A stretch of 64,000 nucleotides of DNA. It comes from Linnemannia elongata. Taxonomy: Eukaryota > Mortierellomycota > Mortierellomycetes > Mortierellales > Mortierellaceae. Positions 2,523-35,937 of this stretch are shown here, piece after piece (position 1 is the stretch's first letter; each line of letters opens with the position of its first letter). The DNA is taken from positions 1 through 64,000 of the forward strand of contig JAXBDG010000019.1 in NCBI GenBank assembly GCA_036320915.1, given 5' to 3'. The translations under genes and the position numbers were made by a program. The notes under the pieces are model-generated. The model was not told the DNA's origin. It worked only from the letters and a program-made list of their open reading frames with translations, and searched no databases.

Positions 2523-5500
2523 ATTCTCTTTTACTTTTGTTCCTGGGTAGTGGACACTCGTGGTCCTCATCTGCTGAGAGGTTCGCATCTACGATGATAT
2601 AGATATCGATGCAGTGCGCACACTTCATTTGCGGCGCTTGGGTTGTTTACAACTTTATGATTTGCTTCTTCCTTTCCTCCCTGCCTTTTCTTTTTGCCCT
2701 CCTCTTACTTGAACAACTAATTCGCGCCGGCATTGATTCGCTCGCATTCTCGCCATTCGTCTTCATTGTCATCATTTCAACCACGCATTCATTCTATCTT
2801 GTTTCATTTGGTATTCTCTTTCCCGTTGAGACAGTCCCACAAGCAGACAGACGCACTCCCCCGCCCCAAGGTCTCATATCCAACCATGTACCCATTTACA
2901 GTTTGCTGATTGAGGGTACCCGCGTGGGCGCTAATGAAAGTACGGTCTCCATCCATCCTCATGTCTCTTATCTTTTGTTTTCCTTCCCGCACCTGTTCTA
3001 GAACGATCTCTTTCTTCTTTCTTTTCTCTTCACTCCTTCGTCCCACTTTCTTTACCCTTCACCTTCACTTCTTCGTTCGCGGCCGCGAACCTAACAAATA
3101 GGAACGACATCGGCAGAGAGGTAATTCGGAGGGCAGAAGGAGTATCCATTCCCGACCACCACCACGTTGGCAATGTCCCCTTTAGCAGACAAAAGCCTCT
3201 CTTGTCACAGCAATAGCACCAACGCTATTTTGTTCTCAACAGCCCCTGGTGCCAAGATCAACAATCGTAGGCACACTGATCATCCCAACGACTCCCGATT
3301 CGTGTACAAGATCGACATGGTCTGACCAAATCTTCATCATCCTAACACTTCTACCCCCAGACCATTTTACAATCCTGTGCGAACGAGCCAATTGGACAAC
3401 CTCACCGCATTCCGCCCAGGAGGACTGCAGTTGTTGACCGTCGATTCTTGTTCTACACCCCCCTGCGCCTGTGATAGATCGACGGCAAGCTGTGCCTCAG
3501 CCCTGCATCAGCAGCAAGATCACCTTCAGCACTGCTGTAGTGCTGTCGTCAATTGCGACTCCTGCGAACGCTTGAATACACTGTACCTTGGTAAGGAAGG
3601 AGGAGTTATTAGTCTTGAGTAGTTCGGTGCTACTGTCTGGATGGTATTGAGAGGGAGAGTCCAAAGTGGTGCCATTATTTGTATTCAGATCCAGCGACCG
3701 TACATCACACCATTGTGTGGGAGAATAATGCCTGAAAAGACAAGAAAAAGGGGAAAAGAGAACTTTACCCCTAGTCCCAGAAACCAAACGACGTACATTT
3801 GCTCCGAGCGGAACCTGAAAAAATAGACATCATAGAAATAGAAGCGAAGAAGGGAGGAAGGAAGAAAGGAATGAGTGAGCTGTGGGGATAATGAAAAGTG
3901 GAATGAAATGATACATAGAACAAAGAGAACCTATAGCTAATCAAGGGAAACACGGAATTGAGGCAAAGGAAATAAAATGAAGCAAGGAGTGTCGTTGTGT
4001 TTCCAGACGGACGGAATATGTTTGATGTAGGGACGACAAAAAGGGCAATTCTCTTACAAGGAACACTGAGAGCAACAGCATCAGCGATGACTCCAGTGAC
4101 AATTTGTTCTTTTTCCGTGGGACTGTGGGTGCACAAGAAACGACATGGCTAAGAAAAAAGAGGGTACTGAGCATATCAACAACGCTTGTTTAAAAAAAGA
4201 ATGAAGGAGAGTGAGCCAGGAGTTGAAGGGATGTGATACTCAGATCTCTGGATGTTTTAGACCCAGGATGGTTGTGCCTCCTTCACAATGCTGTTGGCGT
4301 GTTGGCATGGCGACATTATTGAAAGATGGCTTCTTTTTATATATGGTTATGTAAAGACTCCAAAAGACGACACACAAGTAGGACGGCCAGGCATTGGTTG
4401 GACGTGCTACTTGTTAAAATTGCGGGATGCGCCACAACTAGACAGAGATCCAAGAGATGTGAGTGAATGAATGGATTGGATGAATTGATGAATATGAGAG
4501 TGTGTATGTGCTAATGCGTTTCTGGTTCTCCTGCGCGCGTCTCTCTCCTCTTTTCCCATTGAAGATGTTCACATCAGCACCAATGGCGAAGAACAAGAAG
4601 AAGAAGAGGAAGAAGAAAAGAAAAAAGAAGAGGAAGGGTGCATCTGAATTGTGTGGTCCAAACCATACCAAGGCATCTCTTCTTTAAGAAGAGAAATGAT
4701 AGCAAGATCCTCCGGCCTCTTCCTTCTTTGCAAGGTTGTGTGTTTGGTATAGCTGATTAGGTCGTGTGTTGTAAGATAGAGTATAATATCTTTCTGATCT
4801 TTTTCTTTGATGTTGACCATGAGGCATTCAACAACTCCAACTCCAACAACGACAGACAAGACACAGACATATACCCACACCGTCTCCTGGATCCCTGTGT
4901 GGTCTTCTCCTCCTACCTCCTTTCCCTCCCTTTTTCTCTTCATCCTCATCCTCTCTTTCCCCTTCTCTTTCTCCTCCTTCTCCTTCTCCTTTGTTTTGTT
5001 TGTTTGTGTGTCTCTCTATCCTTTTCTCTACCTCTCTCTTACTCTCTCTCTTTCTGACTTTCTTGAACCCCTCCCTTTCTCCGCACTTGCATCTGCATCC
5101 CTCCAGATGTCGATATTGTGCGATACTTGTTGTCGTCTGTCCCATTACATCGCCCATACCAATCGTTTGTTTTCGTATTTGCTTTACTTTGTATTACTTT
5201 ATGTCCGTTCATACGCAGACAGACGACAACAGCAAACGAGTAATTGGGTACATGCAGTTGAGTATGGTGCTCACCCTTCATAGCAGTAGCCCCACTCATT
5301 TCATCTTTGGTCCCTGTATTCTTTCTTATTTTTTTTTTCCTATGATCCTTCGTACATTATCATATCATATCATGTCATATCATTTCCATTTACTTTTTTT
5401 TTCTTCTTCTCCTCGCTCTCATCCTTGCTCATCCTCCTCCTTCTCTTCGTCTCCTCCAATCCTTCTAGAGTCACCATCCCCAGAGCCGAGTCGACGGCGA

Positions 5501-6589
5501 CCACACAACATACAGCAGCATTGGTTTCTTTTGTTTAGCCCCTTCCTCGACTTACTCTTCCTTCTCCTCCTCTTCGTCTTCGTCTTCCTCCCCCTCGCCT
5601 TCGTCCGGCGTACCATTATCATTGCCATCATCTACATCATCATCACCCATCCTTTTCATCTTAGCACCTAGGAACTTTAGTCTCCTCTCCTTTTCCCTCT
5701 TCATTTGACTCTTCCCGCTCGCTCTCACCTCTGCGATCAACAAGCTTCTCGATCCAAGCCGAGAATAGCGACGAAAAAAAAAACAAGGACGGCAACGACG
5801 ACAACTGTGCTGCAGTATCAACCGCTCTTGCATCGGAGAGCAGCAGCAATATTGCAGGTATTACATGACTACCAGGAGGGAAACAGCTACCTTTTCAACA
5901 AACGACGCCTTGAACTATTTACGGCCTAATTGCTTCGGACGCTCACAAGGTGCATTTCGCCCGACCCCCGTTTCCTATCTCCATCTCTCTCTGTCTCGTT
6001 CTGCCAACACATCAAAGTAATATCGCAATATTAAGAGTCAACGACAAAACAGTAAAAACAATTGGGCATTGGCGATGCTACAACAAAGCAAAGGGAAAAG
6101 CACCAAAAGTGCCAGCATTAGGAGCAAAACCAGAGGCGATAATAATTATCGAGATGGAGATCTTTCAATACTTGTCTTCTTGAATAACGACAAAAAAAAA
6201 AAAAAAAAAAGAGAGACCCATCCGTTTTTTTTCTGTCGATGTGTATGTGTGTTTGTGTATGGTATTCCGTTTCTGTCACTGGTTAGTTCAGGCATTAACG
6301 CGGATCTGTCTCCGTTTCTCTTTGTAATTTTGCCCCCTTTGCCTTTTACAAACCTTTCTGGCGCTCGTTCGGCTCCATTTCCCTTCTATTCGTATTTGTC
6401 TGTCGCCATCATAATCATCATCACCACCACCGCCATCCATCACCATCGCCGATAGAGTTCTCCGTGTCTTCAGCCAACTCCAACTACTGTCGCCCTTTCA
6501 ACGAGAACAGCATCAGCATCGCCTTGACTTCCTCACCATCCTCGTCCTGCACACACTTATCATCGTTCTCACCCACAGCCCATCAAGCC
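2523..6589. other. 4-kb region without a supported gene, upstream of the DUF1765-like gene
   Basis: No multi-exon gene model with recognisable protein families could be built. The stretch 3100-3800 has more balanced composition than its surroundings and contains short frames (see the candidate at 3497-3787). An (AAG)n-like tract lies near 4591-4632. CT-rich plus-strand tracts fill about 4880-5090 and 5400-5700, and an A19 run is at 6192-6210. The CT-rich part from about 5.4 kb to the ATG probably contains the promoter and 5' leader of the next gene. Confidence 0.5.
3497..3787 (-). CDS. Doubtful small open frame, unassigned
   Basis: An open minus-strand frame of 96 codons. Its C-terminal third looks protein-like (Cys, Ala and Val rich, ending in a Leu-rich stretch followed by a stop), and the local base composition differs from the simple-sequence DNA around it. 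I recognise no family, there is no clear signal peptide, and no partner exon with good splice sites was found. It may be a decayed gene fragment or chance. It is listed only so that the stretch is not overlooked. Confidence 0.2.
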   Translation of the reverse strand: MVSGTRGKVLFSPFSCLFRHYSPTQWCDVRSLDLNTNNGTTLDSPSQYHPDSSTELLKTNNSSFLTKVQCIQAFAGVAIDDSTTAVLKVILLLMQG

Positions 6590-9500
6590 ATGTCTTTCTA
6601 CCCGAGACCCTCTGCCATTCCTGACTCCTATCCCTTAATTATCTCTGGACCAACTCTCTCTCCCACTCCCACTCCCACTCCCACATCTCTGACCATTCTT
6701 CCTCCCGAACCCTCATCCGCTCCCTCTCCTTCTTCCTCCTCTTCCTCCTCTTCCTCCACTTCCTCCTCTTCCTCCTCTTCCTCCACCTCTTCCTCTTCTT
6801 CACCCACCACTCCCTCTTCCAATCCCTCACCCTCTATTGCCGCATCTCCTTACCCATCCACCTCAGATCGCGCACTCACTCGCCCTCCACTCTCACCTTC
6901 ACCCTCACCCTTGCCTTCCAATCCTGGTCGACTCCACAATAACAACAGGAAAAGCGATCCACCACCTTCACTCCCACTCCTAACTTCACTTCCATTGTCA
7001 CTCTCACTCTCCTTCTCTGCACCCTTCTCCTCTTCTCTCCCCTCGTTTGACTCCTCAGCATCCTTGTTGTCTCCGACTCCCACCCTCTCTCCTTTGCCCT
7101 CCACCTCCCCTCTTTCTCTACACCCTAACTCCCCAACCGTCTACTCGCCCTCTTCACCCTCAAGCATCGCATTCATTGACTCAACAAGAGACTCTGTAAC
7201 ACAAACGAGAGCGGGTAGTCAGGACAGTACCACAGCCTCTTCTCTGGCACCCGCACCCTCTGCGAAGCCAGCATCTGTGGACTCAAGCGCCTTTCCCATC
7301 GCCTCTCGTCACTCGTCGACCTCCTCCCTTCTCTCTCCCTCCTTTCAATCGTCCATTGAAGCAACATCGTCTTCATCTTTGACAGCGCTACCAACACTAA
7401 CGACAAGTGCCCTTTCTGATTCAGGAACAAGAGCGACAATACCTCCTCTCCAACTGACACAGGCACGGGCGATCAGTTTACCAGATCTTGGCGTCAATAT
7501 GGCCCGACGACAGTCATGTAGCGATCTTCCTCCAACCTCCATTATCATCCCACCTTACTCGCGCACTTCCTCCCCGCCCTTTGTCTCCAAAGTCAGCTCG
7601 CACTCAAGATCGGCCAGCACAGATATGCGGCCATCGGTAAAGAGTCGCCTCTTGCGCAACTGGATTGGACAGAGTGGCCAGCAGGAATACAAGGTCCTCG
7701 AGCGCTCACTGGCAAGGTACGCAATTATCCATTTCTGCCAATGCCTATTCAATCAATGCTTTCATGCCAAGTTTCCCTTTCCTTTTTCCTTCTTTTTTTC
7801 TTTCTTTATTTTGCATTGCATGTGGGCTGGGAGAGCTCCTATTATTCGATCGCTTGACCGACATCTGGTCTGGTCTAGCATGTCATCACTATGCACCAGC
7901 CAAAACAACAACAATACGCCAAAAAAAGGAGTGCGCAGAGGCGTACGAGACCAACACCAAAAGCTAATGTTCACTTGACTTTCTATTTCTTTGCTGTCGT
8001 GTAGATTCCACCAAAAGGACCGATACAGGATTGATGTCCTCAAGACTAGCCTCTTGCCATGGCTTAGGAAGGACCAGCCCAGTCTAGGTATACATACGAA
8101 CAGCACAACAAGGAAGAAGGGATGAAAAAAAGGGCAAAGTGCAATTTGGATAAGAGTGAAAAAAATTGAGGGGTGGGACTACCGGCAAAATGAGAAAATC
8201 GACAAAGGTCGAATTGGGAATGACTATCGTTTGCATTGATGATCCCGTCACTGGAAGGATGTGTTTGGCACACTCTGTTACAAACAGCGCTGATTCTTGA
8301 TACACTCAAAGGAGGTGTAAAACAAAAAGAAGAAACGAGAAGGATGATCTCTTTACATCCTCCGCGGACAGTGCGCCATTAGCACCCTGAGTGTTGACTA
8401 AAACAGGGAAGGATTGTCCTTGGCTGGCAGGACAGGAAACTCATCTTCAACTTTCTTTTTTTTTCTTCTCGCTGCTGTGTTAGATTCCTTGTCAGAGACT
8501 TCGCTTAGGACAGGAAGGCAACTTATTATGCAGTGGTAAGCAGGACACATTGACGACATGAGAAGGGGGAGGCAAGGGGAGGGGAGGGGAGGGGAGGGAA
8601 ATGGGAAGGGGATGGGGATAGCTAAAAATATACCCCTTTTTGCTTTGCCAAAAGATGAAGGATATCAAACGAGAGCAAGGCATAAAAAATGGATTGACCA
8701 TGGTGAAGAAGAAACAAACATAAACGTGTTACACGAATACGAGAGAACGCTGTGCAACTAACAATCTGGTTACGCTGTGTGCACAATCATCTAGGTGGAC
8801 GACGCTTCTTGCAGTGCTCCCGGATGCCCTCTACACGGATCGGTGTCATTATTTTGAATGTATCATCGCCCTCATGACAAGGTACAGTCAAGGCCATGAT
8901 GGGATGCGATGAACATTCGTATTGCCACAAGGATCAATGACTCTACCGTACAGCCTGAATTAACATTCTGTCGTTCTCTTTCGTTTGATTCATAGGAAGG
9001 AGTTTGACGAGTTTGGTAAGGACCGGGTGACAGTCATGGAATATTCCCACCATGAAAAAAAACATCAAGTCTGGTCGGCTGACGCGCGCTTCCGTTTTGT
9101 TACCACTCACACATATTAGATCGTTTGGAGGATGTCGTTTCAAAACCAACAACACCATCAACAGTCAGGACATTCTTGGACGGCTCAGTGACAGAGCACA
9201 ACTCTTCCTCGACTTCGGTCTCGTCCAGTACCACCCTTGGATCGGGATACCCCTTCTCGGACTCGGGAGCATTCTGGTCATCATTTCACCAATACCGCAA
9301 GATGTTGACCCAGTCGCTTCAATATGCAATCGAGCGTCTGAACCAGAAAGGTGTCTACTCGAATGTGATCACCTTTTGCGCAAAGATCCTGGCGCTCTGC
9401 TTTTTCAAATTGCCGGGTGTTGCGTTTGGTTTGCTCCATGCACTCCCTGCGAGCCGATCCTATATTAGCCGCATGGCTAAAGCAATGGATCTTCTCGGGT

Positions 9501-30967: not shown

Positions 30968-31422
30968 CTTTGTTTGTGGATGTGTGCGTTGTTCTTTATA
31001 AAGAATTGAGGAGAAGCAGGAAGAGAGAGGTGATGGAAAGGATGGAAGGGATGGAAGCAATTGAATGGAAGAGCGTGTGTGTGTGTGTGCGTGGAAATAA
31101 ACAAACAGCAGAGAAAAGGTGAGCAACTTGTAAGTTATGGGCAAATTCCACAGGTTTTATAGTTTACTCCTTGCTCATTCTATCTGACAATGATGAGAGG
31201 AAGGAAGATGTTGGGAGTGGGGTGCGTGTTTGACTGTTTAAGTAAAGCTCCGCTCCAGTGTGCAATAGGGATGTCCATGGCCACTAGGATTGTGTACATG
31301 TGACTGTTACTCGATGGCGCCATCAGGGGTTGATCTGGCTTATCCCTTCGTCTGTCCACGGTCACAGCAGGCTGCAACTGGAGGCAGTCGTGAGGATAGA
31401 TGTCACGTTCAGTTCGTGAACG
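30968..31422. other. Intergenic region between rhodanese and the XPG-Fanzor gene
   Basis: About 455 bp. It holds a (GT)n at 31076-31089 near the rhodanese start, a 12-bp perfect palindrome at 31313-31324 and a 7-bp-stem hairpin at 31405-31423. The part closest to the Fanzor stop is where other Fanzor/TnpB loci encode their guide RNA. Confidence 0.5.
31313..31324. repeat. 12-bp perfect palindrome GATGGCGCCATC
   Basis: Self-complementary 12-mer lying about 100 bp beyond the Fanzor stop codon. It could be part of an RNA stem or a protein site; alone it is weak evidence. Confidence 0.6.
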
Positions 31423-31423
31423 T
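31405..31423 (-). ncRNA. Hairpin at Fanzor 3' end, possible guide-RNA element
   Basis: ACGTTCA and TGAACGT form a perfect 7-bp stem with a 5-nt loop. The stem touches the last base of the Fanzor stop codon (31425-31423). In characterised Fanzor and TnpB loci the guide (omega) RNA begins in or just after the 3' end of the nuclease gene. The position fits, but the RNA itself is not demonstrated here. Confidence 0.3.
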
Positions 31424-34400
31424 TACAACGATAAAGCTTGTGGGGGTCGTTCTAGAGGTAATGGCCGGGTTTGATCCGTCATCCAGCGTTCGGCAATCAA
31501 CGCAATGTTTTGAGCACCAACAGAGTCCCTATTGATCCACCGACCACACTCCAGGCACACACACGACCGCCGAGTAGGTTTGGCGACTCTAGATGGTACG
31601 TCATGAGCCGCACAACTGGGGCACATAGTCGATGTTAGGTATTCGTCGACCAAGACTACAACGTGGCCAGTGCTCTAGCCTAGATTATTGAAAGAGTAAA
31701 GGCATGATTAATAAATTGTATCTCAACAGCAATGTTTTTGCATGAAAACAAAGGAGCAATTGTATATTACTGAATGTTACCTTCTTGGCAAAGTGCGTTT
31801 TAAAGCACTCATGTTTCGAAGCAAGATTGAATCCTGTTCTGAACGTGCCATTTCCGACGGCGATCAGACAAGGCTCCGGACCGCACAATCTGAGAATGGC
31901 ATCCACTGCCATGTCCAGCTCCGCCCGCTTGGCCCTCTTCTCGGCCCACGAGTCTTTTTGAAGTCGGCTTGTCGAATAAATCTCTCGTAGAAGAGGCTCC
32001 AAGGTCAACCTAACAAGAAGGGCTTCTTCAAACTCGTCCACCGTATACTGCTCCTGCGACGGTAGCGCACTTTCCATGTTTGCAAGTGAGGGGAGCCGTA
32101 ATGTGACTGCTGTCGGATCATGCTCTCGAACCCAAAGATCACCGGTGACAACTTCGTTTGGCCGAGCTTCTGGAATCCTGTTCTTGACCCTCTCGCGGTC
32201 GGCTCTTGCACTTGTTGTTGGGGAATAGAGCGCAGATCGGCGAATCAAGAGGTTTGAAACAGCTGGATCATTTGTCTCGGGTTGCCGATTCCAGTTGTGA
32301 GCATGATGGATCATACAGAGTGCTGCTGTTACAAGCTCTCCAGGGTCCCAGCCAATGCATTTTGGGATCTGACCATTGAAGATCCGCATGATCGTGGCGT
32401 GATCAGGCAAGACCTTCTCTACGCGCATGATCGGATCGATGGCGAAGGAGGGCTGATATCGAGACCTTGTGTCGTACGCCAACACCTGCAATTCTAATCC
32501 GTTTGTGCGTATAAAGTTGTTGACGGCGTATCTTGAAGAGGGCTGGTTGTTGATCGGAAACACTGGAGGAACTTGTAAGCAGGGTACACCACGGTCACGA
32601 GCAATTGCCGCAGCCCTATTGTAAGCGATCTGTTGGTTGACGAAGCCCTGCAGGGCCCGGTATCCGAACTGCTGAGGCATCGAGTCCGCCAAAGACCCCA
32701 TTGTTGTCGTATGTTTGTCGTAGCTTGTAAGATGGGTTTTGATGCCGATCCTAGGATTTTGTGATCCTGTGTTCCTTGTCCCGTAAAAAAGAAGCTTTAT
32801 CAGCTCTCCAGGTCGTGCCTTCACCATGTTGTCTGCATCTGACGAGCTTAAAAGCCGAGTGACGATGGGAAGCGCTGGATTTTCCCCCTTGCCCCAAAGA
32901 ACTGCCTTCAGCCCTCGCTTCTGCATTTGCATAAATGGTGGGTGGAGTTTCGCATGGGGGTGAAGCACGGTCGCAGGTCCGCAGGCAAAGAAAGTAAATG
33001 GCTCCACCAGGTTCGAATGTGGCCGGGCTGGATATCCGAGCATTCGTCCTCGTTCGGTTCATCTTCGTCTTCCAGCTCATGGTCGAGTGAGTGATCATCG
33101 GCGTTCTCGCTCTTGTCCTCACCAGGTATTCGAGGAATCTTGCTCTCATCCCAGCCTAACTTCCTCATTTACAGGAAGAGATGAAAAGAACTTATTAGCA
33201 GTCCAATCAAAGAAGACCTGCAAAGCAATAAACAGTGGGAGCGTGTCGAAAGTACCTTGGCCACAATAGTATGCGGTAACTTCTTGAAGTGTGTTTGGAT
33301 AGGGACAAACACACTCAAACCAAACTCCATGACGTTATCAGCCGTGTTGATTGATGTAGTGTTGAGTGGGCGTAATCCGTGAGCGATCTCCTTGTACCGA
33401 TCGTACGTACGCAGGGCCAGCCCGCGAGCCGCAATGCCATCGACATTCTCGCTAGTCTTTTCCCCCAAACTATCATTGAGGACCAGCGTGGCGAGGTTTC
33501 TTATAAGCAACGTTCCTGGGGCTTTCCTCAACAACAAATCCAACGAGTCCGAACTCTGAAAACCCTCAATCTCCATCGTTGGTCTTGTTAATTCGTCCAG
33601 TACAAGCATCGTCAGCATATGGAATACGTGACCCCTAACATCGGACATCAAGTGAGCGGCGGACTCGAGACGGGACGCGATGATGTTGATCTCCTCATCA
33701 CTCACTCCCTGACTGCCAATCCCGCGTCGCAGGCTCGCCTTAATTGATCCCACATATTGTGTGACAGCCTTGTACGTCGCCTTAAAGGCATCTTTCAAGA
33801 GGGCGGGTGTTGGGTGCGCGTCAACATTTCTGGTTTTCGGGGTGGAGCTTGACGCGGTCTTCTTCTTCTTCTTCTTCTTCTTCTTCTTCTTGCTGTTGGA
33901 CGATAGTGGTGGGGAAGTAGACGCCGAGGAGGAAGGTGCCGATGATGACGATGAGATAGGGGAAGGCTGATCGGAGGCGTGGTTGTTGGAAGCGGTTGGT
34001 CGTCTTGGAGGCGAGGGAGTCATCTTGCTAAGGGCTGCATCGTCCACAGGGCTGGCTGTTGAGGGATCTTCAACCCTATGAGCTGAGTATCGAGGATTCG
34101 AGTCATTCCTTGAGCGATATCTAATTTATTTCAAGCAACATATAAGTATCAGTTACCTGCTTTTGTTCATGCGCAGACCATCATGCAAATCCCAAAATAA
34201 AATACTTGGACTGCCGCCACTTTTTTCGTGTAGCGTATTTTTTTGAGTTCTTCTTCCTTTGCTTGCTCTTCTGAGTTTTACTCCGCCGGTGCCGTCGCCG
34301 TTTGGGGTTCAATGCTGGCTGTTGCAGGGGTGGAGGCTGCAGTTGTTTCGGTAACGCTGTGTCCCGAACGAGTTTGTCTAGCTCCAGCTGATACAGAACA

Positions 34401-35937
34401 CTAACGACAAGCTCATGTGATGTGGTGTCCTGCAGAGCGGATGTCGAGGATGCCTGGTTTGGGGACGGCGCTGGAGTCAACTCAAGGGGTGCGCCGTCAA
34501 TTTCCATCGGAGTCGGCATGTCGTCGAGAGCCTTGCTGAGTTCCAAGTCCAAATTCATCTGCGAAGTCGCCATGTCTGGATCGCCATTGGGCTCTTGGTC
34601 ACTGTTGGGCTCTGGATCCTCCGTCATCTCCACAAATGCCCTCAGCGCATGCTCAAAGTCCTCCACTCCTACCGCCAGCTGTGTCTCCATCCTGCGGCGA
34701 TTTTTTCGGGTGCGTTTTCTGGCGAAAATCTCTCGTTGAACGCGGACAAGGTACTCCTGCACGTACTGTCGAAAGGACTCGATGTCGTTGAGGGGTAGAT
34801 CCATTGATCGGATGATGTCACACGAGCGACTCAGGCCGTAATAAGGCACGCCACTGGTATAATCGTTTCCTGCAACAATAGCGGCCAACAGCAGGTGGCT
34901 GTCCGAAGGGAGTTCCAGCACGCGAAGAAGGTCTGCCTTCTCGATCACGGTCATTTCACGATGCTTTCCGAGAGGGTAGATAAGCCGTGGAATGGACTTG
35001 AAGGCAATCATGTCGGAATCTCCGCTGACAACAAAGAGGTCCTCCGGGTGAACGACCTGGGCACAACGGCGCGCAATGCACGTATCGGCCTGATAAGAGC
35101 AAAAGCATACATTGCACCCATAGGTCAAGATCAACTCGGCAATGATCTCACCAATGACGCCGAGGGGGGGCCGGTAGACATTCTTGGCCTTTTTGTACGC
35201 TGCCTTCCTCCTAGACCCTCCAACAATCCGCGCCTGAGTGGTCGTTGATCGAAGAACATCCATGTCCTTGACTTGCCGGTCCTGACGCCGTTGATGCTCC
35301 TTCTGGTTCTGCAGCGATGGCAGGCCATCCCAGTGCAAGATAGTCGACTCTGCCTGAGGATCACAATATTTCGACATTTGATTGAAAAGTTCCTTCGCAA
35401 TATGAGAAAAATTTTATTGAGAAAAAAATAGAAAATTGTAAGCAATGTGTTTACCCGTGTACATCGAAAACGTAACATCTATCATCAAATATGAATACAT
35501 ACCATCGATCTGCGATGATCTCCGTCCTCGACCTTGCCCTCTTTCGTCACAACGACCGACAAAGGACCTGCAGCATCATACGCCAACTGCGACAGTTTGT
35601 CCGCGAGTGAAAAATGTGTGTTGGCTTGCTCCAATAGCTCCGCATTCAAGGTGAGGAGACTGTCGGGGTCTACTGTCTCAATCTGCTCAGTGGCGGTTAT
35701 ATCAGTCTGTTCAGAGGCAGTAAGGGGCGCTGATGGTGTTTCCTGCATGCTGGGGTGGTTGACGGCGGCTGCGCGGGCCACTGACGACGCGTACTTTTCC
35801 ACCACAGAGAAGGTCCGGGCTTTTATCAGCCGAAAGTAGGCTCCGTTGACATCGATGTGCACTTGTTTGTCCTTGATGACGCTCGGTATACGCCCGTTGG
35901 CAGATGCAATCTCCGATGGCAATCCGTGGACGCCCAT
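31423..35937 (-). CDS. XPG/FEN1-like nuclease fused to Fanzor RuvC nuclease
   Basis: Six inferred exons: 35937-35503, 35392-34207/34206, 34120-33256, 33159-33123, 33027-31781 and 31674-31423 (introns 110, 86, 96, 95 and 106 bp). With exon 2 ending at 34206 every junction keeps frame, giving 1340 residues. N-terminal part: XPG N-region starting MGVHGLP with Asp29, WDG (Asp167) and XPG-I region GDSDMIAF (Asp270, Asp272). AGNDYTSGVPYYGL (Asp322) matches the helix-hairpin region; the FEN1 ExE site reads QAD. Then come a basic linker, a Ser-rich linker with an 11-Lys run, an unknown helical region, and a Fanzor half. The latter has RuvC-I IGWDPG (Asp ~1069), RuvC-II VDEYLTS (Glu ~1268), zinc ribbon CPSC...CLEC and RuvC-III NRDSVGAQNI (Asp ~1307). 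All RuvC acids are intact. If exon 2 were not spliced at 34206 it would stop at 34181, and a separate Fanzor would start at ATG 34023, only 158 bp away. Confidence 0.75.
33862..33891. repeat. In-frame (CTT/AAG)n tract inside coding exon
   Basis: A triplet repeat in exon 3 of the XPG-Fanzor gene, encoding a run of about 11 lysines on the minus strand. It is likely length-variable and could act as a nuclear localisation or nucleic-acid-binding patch. Confidence 0.85.

What the first reader, a model, noticed from the sequence alone, without database searches (positions are those of the whole stretch)
31423..35937. One gene appears to join an XPG/FEN1-like flap nuclease to a Fanzor (eukaryotic TnpB) RNA-guided nuclease
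Seen: the XPG-like frame and the Fanzor frame lie head to tail on the same strand. A GT-AG intron of 86 bp (34121-34206) removes the apparent XPG stop and joins them in frame, and the whole six-exon model is divisible by three (1341 codons). The gap between the XPG stop (34181) and the first Fanzor ATG (34023) is only 158 bp, too short for an easy two-gene reading. Known: Fanzors are transposon-carried, RNA-guided RuvC nucleases; XPG/FEN1 enzymes cut 5' flaps and branched DNA. Inference: a two-nuclease protein that could both cut a target and process the resulting DNA ends. I know of no described natural protein of this kind.
Basis: partly seen in the sequence, partly recalled or inferred. Interest (0 to 1): 0.93.

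Follow-up and report, generated by a model that had tools for sequence, protein, structure and literature searches.

The report
Flap nuclease fused to Fanzor nuclease
A family of fungal mobile elements carries one gene that is predicted to splice into a single protein joining a flap-type DNA nuclease (XPG/FEN1-like) to an RNA-guided DNA cutter (Fanzor), which would let the element both cut a chosen site and process the cut ends.

Summary
The fusion is real as a gene architecture. An 85-bp phase-2 intron (34205-34121, minus strand) joins XPG-like to Fanzor exons; the same intron is in 11 of 12 related loci read. Downstream of it, L028 and L030 run 100 and 212 codons before an ATG, and 93 aligned codons there have pN/pS 0.42, which argues against a separate Fanzor gene. 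Four of 16 database proteins cross the junction. In the genome 34 of 38 XPG hits have a Fanzor domain 2.9-4.4 kb downstream. Five of six transposon copies modelled have an open fused frame of 1335-1398 residues. These elements have terminal inverted repeats, 8-bp duplications (9 of 11), a TAM-like target motif ACGTCAC (exact in 9 of 18 left flanks) and no transposase found inside. A hairpin, possibly guide RNA, follows the Fanzor stop in 6 of 6 clade copies. Splicing, RNA guidance and nuclease activity are untested.

The parts
35503..35937 (-). Exon 1: start codon and N-terminal part of the XPG-like nuclease (predicted catalytic D in HIDV)
   Evidence: frame and GT-AG intron 35502-35393; homologous exon in L017
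34206..35392 (-). Exon 2: XPG I-region core (WDG, YQADT, SGDSD, GNDY) and basic tail
   Evidence: aligned with XPG relatives; profile of that alignment matches XPG/Rad2/FEN1 chains in the PDB
34121..34205 (-). Junction intron, 85 bp, phase 2; contains the XPG-frame stop at 34181-34183
   Evidence: same place and phase in 11 of 12 related loci read
33256..34120 (-). Exon 3: N-terminal part of the Fanzor half, incl. RYSAHRV motif upstream of the first ATG and a poly-lysine tract
31781..33159 (-). Exon 4: Fanzor middle with RuvC-I (GWDPGE) and the GNG motif; one-base frame break near 32956-32960
   Evidence: alignment
31423..31674 (-). Exon 5: Fanzor zinc ribbon (TNB), alternative catalytic E in VDEYLTS, RuvC-III NRD, stop
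   Evidence: Pfam PF07282 E 1.3e-10; alignment
31341..31398 (-). Hairpin TATCCT...AAGGGATA just after the Fanzor stop; candidate guide-RNA (omega-RNA) part
   Evidence: same hairpin after the Fanzor gene in 6 of 6 clade-A copies; 1 other match in 334,706 bases held; fold

Best explanation
This is one copy, with a one-base frame break, of a transposon-borne fungal gene whose XPG/FEN1-like and Fanzor exons are predicted to be spliced through one conserved intron into a single protein of about 1,350 residues, which likely cuts element-free sites under RNA guidance and then would trim the 5' ends so that repair copies the element in. Shown by sequence: the exon order, the conserved junction intron, open fused frames in intact relatives, element ends with 8-bp duplications, and a motif at a fixed place beside the insertion. 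Inferred: splicing; a guide RNA made from the element's 3' end plus flank; ACGTCAC acting as the target-adjacent motif (TAM); cleavage by the Fanzor RuvC site (D-E-D in sequence); EXO1/FEN1-like 5' end or flap processing by the XPG half, favouring homologous repair from an element-bearing template. My confidence is about 0.93 for the single-gene architecture, 0.75 for an RNA-guided Fanzor half in intact copies, and 0.35 for the end-processing role of the XPG half. For this particular copy I think a full-length active product is unlikely.
For: Junction intron phase 2 in 11 of 12 loci read. Coding conservation before any ATG. Four of 16 database hits cross the junction; P0002 from L. elongata AG-77 has exactly the predicted join KKR-ALVDHPRRHK. 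Paired order for 34 of 38 XPG hits. Open fused ORFs of 1335-1398 aa in five of six clade-B elements for which a model was started. XPG profile matches XPG/Rad2/FEN1 structures, best E 1.8e-10; XPG model (pLDDT 80.5) matches EXO1/FEN1/XPG/Rad2 folds, best E 3.9e-8. TNB matches PF07282; its profile matches the solved TnpB-like L79 (E 4.1e-9), GtFz1 (1.3e-4) and SpuFz1 (1.7e-4). Active-site carboxylates conserved in clade-B XPGs with few exceptions. TSDs, TAM-like motif exact in 9 of 18 left flanks at one fixed offset, conserved 3'-end motif and clade-A hairpin.
Against: No transcript, protein or activity data. This copy has a frame break and Q where clade B has E (YQADT versus TEAD). The clade-B 3' hairpin has only one pair with changes on both sides. 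The motif and TSDs could reflect a trans-acting DDE transposase rather than Fanzor. Pfam finds no XPG family in the window exons or in the fused L031 model. Retaining the junction intron would give an XPG-only protein. 12 of 16 database hits do not cross the junction, among them annotated XPG-only proteins P0001 and P0003 of L. elongata; the search could not return proteins over 476 aa. 20 of 54 TNB hits have no XPG at the expected 2.9-4.4 kb. L024 has a stop in its XPG frame.
Confidence: 0.45

Rival explanations
1. Same fused protein, but the XPG half works in transposition itself (excision or processing of element ends and flaps at insertion), not in repair-based homing; the Fanzor half only retains the element at the donor site.
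For: The fused gene is the only gene found in the L028 element, spanning 4182-8511 of an element 4690 bp long; near-identical copies; exact 8-bp TSDs.
Against: TIRs plus fixed-length TSDs usually mean a DDE transposase (general knowledge); the genome holds MULE and hAT transposases that could act in trans.
Confidence: 0.25
2. Same fused protein, but the XPG half trims the R-loop's displaced strand or matures the guide RNA rather than acting on DNA ends.
For: XPG/FEN1 enzymes act on branched substrates (general knowledge); an R-loop presents such branches. Conserved carboxylates in clade B.
Against: No direct test here; the passages of PMC11423790 that I saw mention no such partner for the solved Fanzors.
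Confidence: 0.15
3. Two proteins: an XPG-like protein ending at the stop in the unspliced intron and a separate Fanzor from its own promoter.
For: The XPG frame has a stop inside the intron in 9 of 9 copies translated there; annotated XPG-only proteins exist (P0001, P0003); no RNA data.
Against: Conserved phase-2 intron, coding for 100 and 212 codons without an ATG in L028 and L030, and database proteins across the junction.
Confidence: 0.06
4. The window copy is a decaying relic of the family, with no present function.
For: Frame break in exon 4; no TIRs found; relatives L017 and L018 also carry stops.
Against: The break sits in a C homopolymer and could be a sequencing error; RuvC residues are intact; window/L017 pN/pS 0.49-0.52; the 3' hairpin is kept.
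Confidence: 0.55

Closest known systems
Fanzor1 (eukaryotic TnpB-like RNA-guided nucleases: SpuFz1, GtFz1, PpFz1)
   Same: RuvC D, alternative E before the zinc ribbon, TNB zinc ribbon, RD motif; carried by transposable elements
   Different: N-terminal XPG/FEN1-like nuclease in the same predicted protein. Term searches of four Fanzor papers showed no such fusion (passages only)
XPG/Rad2 family (FEN1, EXO1, XPG, asteroid-like)
   Same: XPG_N and XPG_I regions in close relatives, conserved carboxylates in clade B, EXO1/FEN1 fold
   Different: Transposon-borne and followed by a Fanzor; the four clade-A members have Q at the first acidic residue of the EA(D/E) motif
Fanzor-bearing TIR elements of Mucoromycota without transposase (ROr-4, PBl-3, MCi-4; Bao and Jurka 2013, PMC3627910 section 12 read)
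   Same: TIRs, short target duplications, Fanzor gene, no transposase
   Different: Those were reported with 9-bp duplications and as MuDR-like; no XPG domain is mentioned in the section read. Whether they hold one was not tested

Membership tests
Fanzor/TnpB | TNB zinc-ribbon domain | tested here: met
   PF07282 E 1.3e-10 for the window exon; PDB profile hits TnpB-like L79 4.1e-9, GtFz1 1.3e-4, SpuFz1 1.7e-4; PpFz1 only 0.13
Fanzor/TnpB | RuvC catalytic D-E-D | tested here: met
   GWDPGE, VDEYLTS, NRDSVG in the window; aligned. The role of the alternative E is from the literature (recalled). Fold not confirmed: model pLDDT 45.5
Fanzor/TnpB | Guide RNA from the element's 3' end | tested here: inconclusive
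   Clade-B 3' motif in 10 of 12 loci scanned and 13 of 16, weak covariation; clade-A hairpin in 6 of 6; no RNA data
Fanzor/TnpB | Target-adjacent motif at the left junction | tested here: inconclusive
   ACGTCAC exact at one offset in 9 of 18 left flanks; could be transposase preference
Fanzor/TnpB | RNA-guided DNA cleavage | not testable with these tools
   needs biochemistry
XPG/Rad2 | XPG_N and XPG_I domains | tested here: inconclusive
   Relative P0005 passes both Pfam cut-offs, P0014 passes XPG_I. Clade-B exons L026, L023, L031 were below cut-off, and the window exons and the fused L031 model had no XPG hit. Profile search met: best E 1.8e-10
XPG/Rad2 | Catalytic carboxylates | tested here: inconclusive
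   Clade B: conserved in a 14-sequence alignment with few exceptions. Window: Q for E at one site
XPG/Rad2 | FEN1/EXO1 fold | tested here: met
   Model of relative L031, pLDDT 80.5, best PDB E 3.9e-8 to EXO1; window itself not folded
TIR DNA transposon | TIRs and fixed-length target duplication | tested here: met
   Clade B: exact 8-bp TSD in 9 of 11 elements printed with both ends; not found for the window copy
MULE or hAT superfamily | Cognate transposase inside the element | tested here: not met
   Fused gene fills the L028 element; MULE and hAT transposases occur elsewhere in the genome

The most novel reading that the evidence does not exclude
A one-gene RNA-guided mobile element: the fused XPG-Fanzor protein, loaded with a guide RNA made from the element's own 3' end, reads ACGTCAC as its target-adjacent motif, cuts the empty site and processes the ends, and needs no transposase of its own to spread. 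The near-invariant 3'-end motif GTGACGT is the exact reverse complement of the target motif, which would let one binding or pairing surface recognise both.
Probability: 0.15. Interest if true: 0.97.

Novelty: new variant of a known kind. Interest (0 to 1): 0.86.

Why it matters
It would be the first natural protein I know of that joins an RNA-guided nuclease to a flap/5'-end nuclease. It bears on the open question of what Fanzors do for their transposons, because it suggests that end processing after RNA-guided cutting is worth building into the element. The TAM-like motif, element ends and candidate guide-RNA hairpins make this directly testable, and such a fusion could inform editing tools that bias repair.

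Tried and rejected
Terminal repeats for the window copy: none convincing among 22 inverted pairs. XPG or Fanzor relatives in viral contigs: none confirmed. Fanzor structure model: pLDDT 45.5, not used. An element with the same ends and its own transposase: 32 of 51 end-pattern sites lie near XPG or Fanzor hits, 19 do not. Four of the 19 were fetched and read for ORFs (L036-L039) and one more for its flank only (L075). L036 has a hAT gene about 1.8 kb past a shared 5' fragment that is split by a 714-bp stretch; no right end was found there, so a linked hAT is not strictly excluded, but the other seven hAT hits of equal score lie 28 kb or more from any such end. Covariation of the clade-B 3' hairpin: only one pair with changes on both sides. 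MAFFT misaligned the clade-A hairpins, so no covariation is claimed. My gene-model script ran past natural stops and bridged stops in the window, L017, L018 and L024 copies; only its L023, L026, L027, L028 and L031 introns, re-read to the first stop, are used. It found no start for L019, L029, L030 and L032, which were therefore not modelled end to end.
Full report
What is in the window. On the minus strand, exons of an XPG-like nuclease are followed by exons of a Fanzor. The last exon matches Pfam PF07282 (Cas12f1-like TNB) at E 1.3e-10. My model has five exons: 35937-35503, 35392-34206, 34120-33256, 33159-31781 and 31674-31423. Introns are 110, 85, 96 and 106 bp, all GT-AG. The XPG frame stops at 34181, inside the second intron; splicing gives ...KKWRQS-K-YRSRND... 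in frame.

Is it one gene? First, the junction intron. Of 12 loci whose junction I read (window, L017, L018, L019, L023, L024, L026-L031), 11 have an intron with the codon split after its second base at the same place: the window, L017 and L019 (clade A) and all eight clade-B loci. L018 is degenerate there. In L026 and L027 two acceptors in the same frame are possible; the Mortierella hygrophila protein P0015 agrees with the upstream one. The junctions in L025 and L032 were not read. Second, no start codon. After the acceptor, L028 runs 100 codons and L030 212 codons before any in-frame ATG, with the first stops at 373 and 394; over 93 aligned codons of that stretch pN/pS is 0.42. For window versus L017 (33 codons) it is 0.49. 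L023/L024 have one synonymous and no other change in 16 codons. Elsewhere the first ATG comes after 16-96 codons. Third, other records. A protein search with the L031 XPG exon gave 16 hits, the named ones from Mortierellaceae. All 16 sequences were looked at. Four run across the junction: P0002 (Linnemannia elongata AG-77, with exactly my predicted join KKR-ALVDHPRRHK), P0007 (L. exigua), P0015 (M. hygrophila) and P0016 (Entomortierella chlamydospora). Twelve do not; they include annotated XPG-only proteins (P0001, P0003, both L. elongata) and partial entries. Proteins above 476 residues could not be returned. Fourth, open frames. My script found a start in six clade-B elements; five (L023, L026, L027, L028, L031) have an uninterrupted fused frame of 1335-1398 residues with junction phase 2, and L024 carries a stop in its XPG frame. 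Some of the other introns in these models are short (51-61 bp) with weak sites, so the exact lengths are provisional.

Genome-wide pairing. The window genome is 51.1 Mb and holds fungal-type genes. P0003, annotated as Linnemannia elongata, lies on a contig whose length equals that of G000:C4, so the species is very likely L. elongata. PF07282 gives 54 hits (53 over the cut-off) and a clade-B XPG query 39, of which 38 were used in the pairing script (a second piece of the C1:1009967 copy was left out). Thirty-four of the 38 XPG hits have a TNB hit downstream on the same strand at 2.9-4.4 kb. Of the 54 TNB hits, 34 pair this way, one weak hit shares an XPG at 6.9 kb, and 19 have none. Of those 19, L020, L021, L022 and L034 look 5'-truncated, with no XPG found upstream in L020-L022 and none in L034, and L033 and L035 are TNB pieces near contig ends beside an unrelated ORF. 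For the others I looked at most at the 3' side.

What carries it. Clade-B copies that have both ends are elements of about 4.7-5.7 kb with imperfect inverted repeats (GGGTGCAGGACAATGGACGCC / GGCTGCAGGACAATTGGCGCC). For 11 elements both ends were printed, and nine have an exact 8-bp duplication (for example ACGTAAAC, AGCCGTCC, CAGATGAC, CATTGTTC, GGAACGAA); C4:147k and C1:1006k do not. Four further elements whose ends came from separate fetches (C32:1941k, C28:2213k, C5:47k, C27:1198k) were not scored; one looks like a 9-bp match and one like 7 of 8, two do not match. L030, L023, L024, L025, L031 and two copies lacking the left-end pattern (L067-L070) were also not scored. Seven XPG copies are 97-100% identical to the L028 query. 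In L028 (4690 bp) the fused gene spans 4182-8511 of the locus; opposite-strand ORFs of up to 140 aa exist and were not searched against Pfam. MULE and hAT transposases exist elsewhere in the genome.

Target and guide-RNA clues. In 18 left flanks the 7-mer ACGTCAC lies exactly 2 bp before the 8 bases next to the element in nine; one more has it one base further out; three have one mismatch, one has two, and four have none at that place. Three of the 18 (L036, L037, L075) are left ends without a known complete element. No other offset within 40 bp has the exact 7-mer. Background is 5.2e-5 per position in 11 loci. At the 3' end, CGGTGAC was found in 10 of 12 loci scanned (not in L022 or L034; the L034 end was not covered) and CGGTGAC or a GTGACGT variant in 13 of 16 stretches behind further TNB hits (not in L044, L050, L022). 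The 19 sequences aligned were chosen because they had it, so 19 of 19 there is no test. GTGACGT, present in 18 of those 19, is the reverse complement of the target motif. A hairpin there pairs in 81.8% of cells but has only one pair with changes on both sides. In clade A, a hairpin TATCCT...AAGGGATA follows the Fanzor stop in 6 of 6 copies; the pattern was written after viewing five, and L020 was the one found blind. One other match exists in 334,706 bases held, some of them overlapping. Folds of five of the six are; z-scores run from -0.69 (L018) and -1.62 (window) to -4.18 (L019).

The two halves. The XPG profile matches XPG, Rad2, FEN1 and EXO1 chains of the PDB, best E 1.8e-10; the L031 XPG model (pLDDT 80.5) matches EXO1/FEN1/XPG/Rad2 folds, best E 3.9e-8. 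By Pfam, P0005 passes XPG_N and XPG_I and P0014 passes XPG_I, but the window exons and the fused L031 model show no XPG family and other clade-B exons stay below cut-off. Clade-B members keep the acidic positions with few exceptions. All four clade-A members have Q where clade B has E (window YQADT, L017 FQSDT, L018 YQADT, L019 HQADC); matching this to FEN1 E158 is recalled knowledge. L017 also has DSN for DSD. The Fanzor half keeps the RuvC D, the alternative E and the RD motif; among the copies aligned, L018 has no E at that place. Its structure model was too poor to use. Clade-A Fanzor hits are 34-53% identical to the window.

How it likely works. Established for TnpB/Fanzor (from the literature, partly recalled): RNA-guided cutting at a TAM-flanked site helps the element persist by recombination. 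The anatomy here fits: the empty site would read ACGTCAC-NN-TSD-flank, and the element's 3' end reads into TSD-flank. The fused XPG half, closest in fold to EXO1/FEN1, would resect or trim 5' ends at the cut and favour copying from an element-bearing template. That step is inference; roles in excision, R-loop trimming or RNA maturation are not excluded.

Literature. In the library held, no paper has both Fanzor and XPG or Fanzor and Mortierella. One paper has TnpB and XPG; only its listing was seen. Searches listed none on such a fusion by title and abstract start (capped lists). Passage searches of PMC10711439, PMC3627910, PMC10432273 and PMC11423790 showed no fusion, and section 12 of PMC3627910 was read. 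Subscription and non-commercial-licence papers, including the 2023 Science Advances Fanzor survey (recalled), were not searched, so priority is not proven.

Noticed in passing
L056-L075 and related left flanks: Target motif ACGTCAC at fixed spacing before the duplication is the reverse complement of the near-invariant 3'-end motif GTGACGT of the elements.
   Followed up: partly
window 31341-31398; L017:8130; L018:2456; L019:2890; L020:6194; L021:5490: Conserved hairpin with invariant basal stem and differing inner stems right after clade-A Fanzor genes.
   Followed up: partly
window exon 2 (YQADT); L017, L018, L019: All four clade-A XPG domains have Q instead of the first E of the acidic motif.
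   Followed up: partly
L033:6304-6531, L035:5608-5826; also C32:6152, C6:6338, C9:1447301, C31:2724596, C27:2931583: TNB zinc-ribbon pieces near contig ends (likely subtelomeric); in L033 and L035 behind an unrelated long ORF that looks F-box/LRR-like by eye.
   Followed up: no
L036 (G000:C9:202001-208000): Fragment of an XPG-Fanzor element 5' end split by a 714-bp stretch, with a hAT transposase about 1.8 kb further on; seven other hAT hits of equal score are 28 kb or more from any such end.
   Followed up: partly
C31:23364-23900 (L047): An element inserted right at the 3' end of an older truncated one.
   Followed up: no
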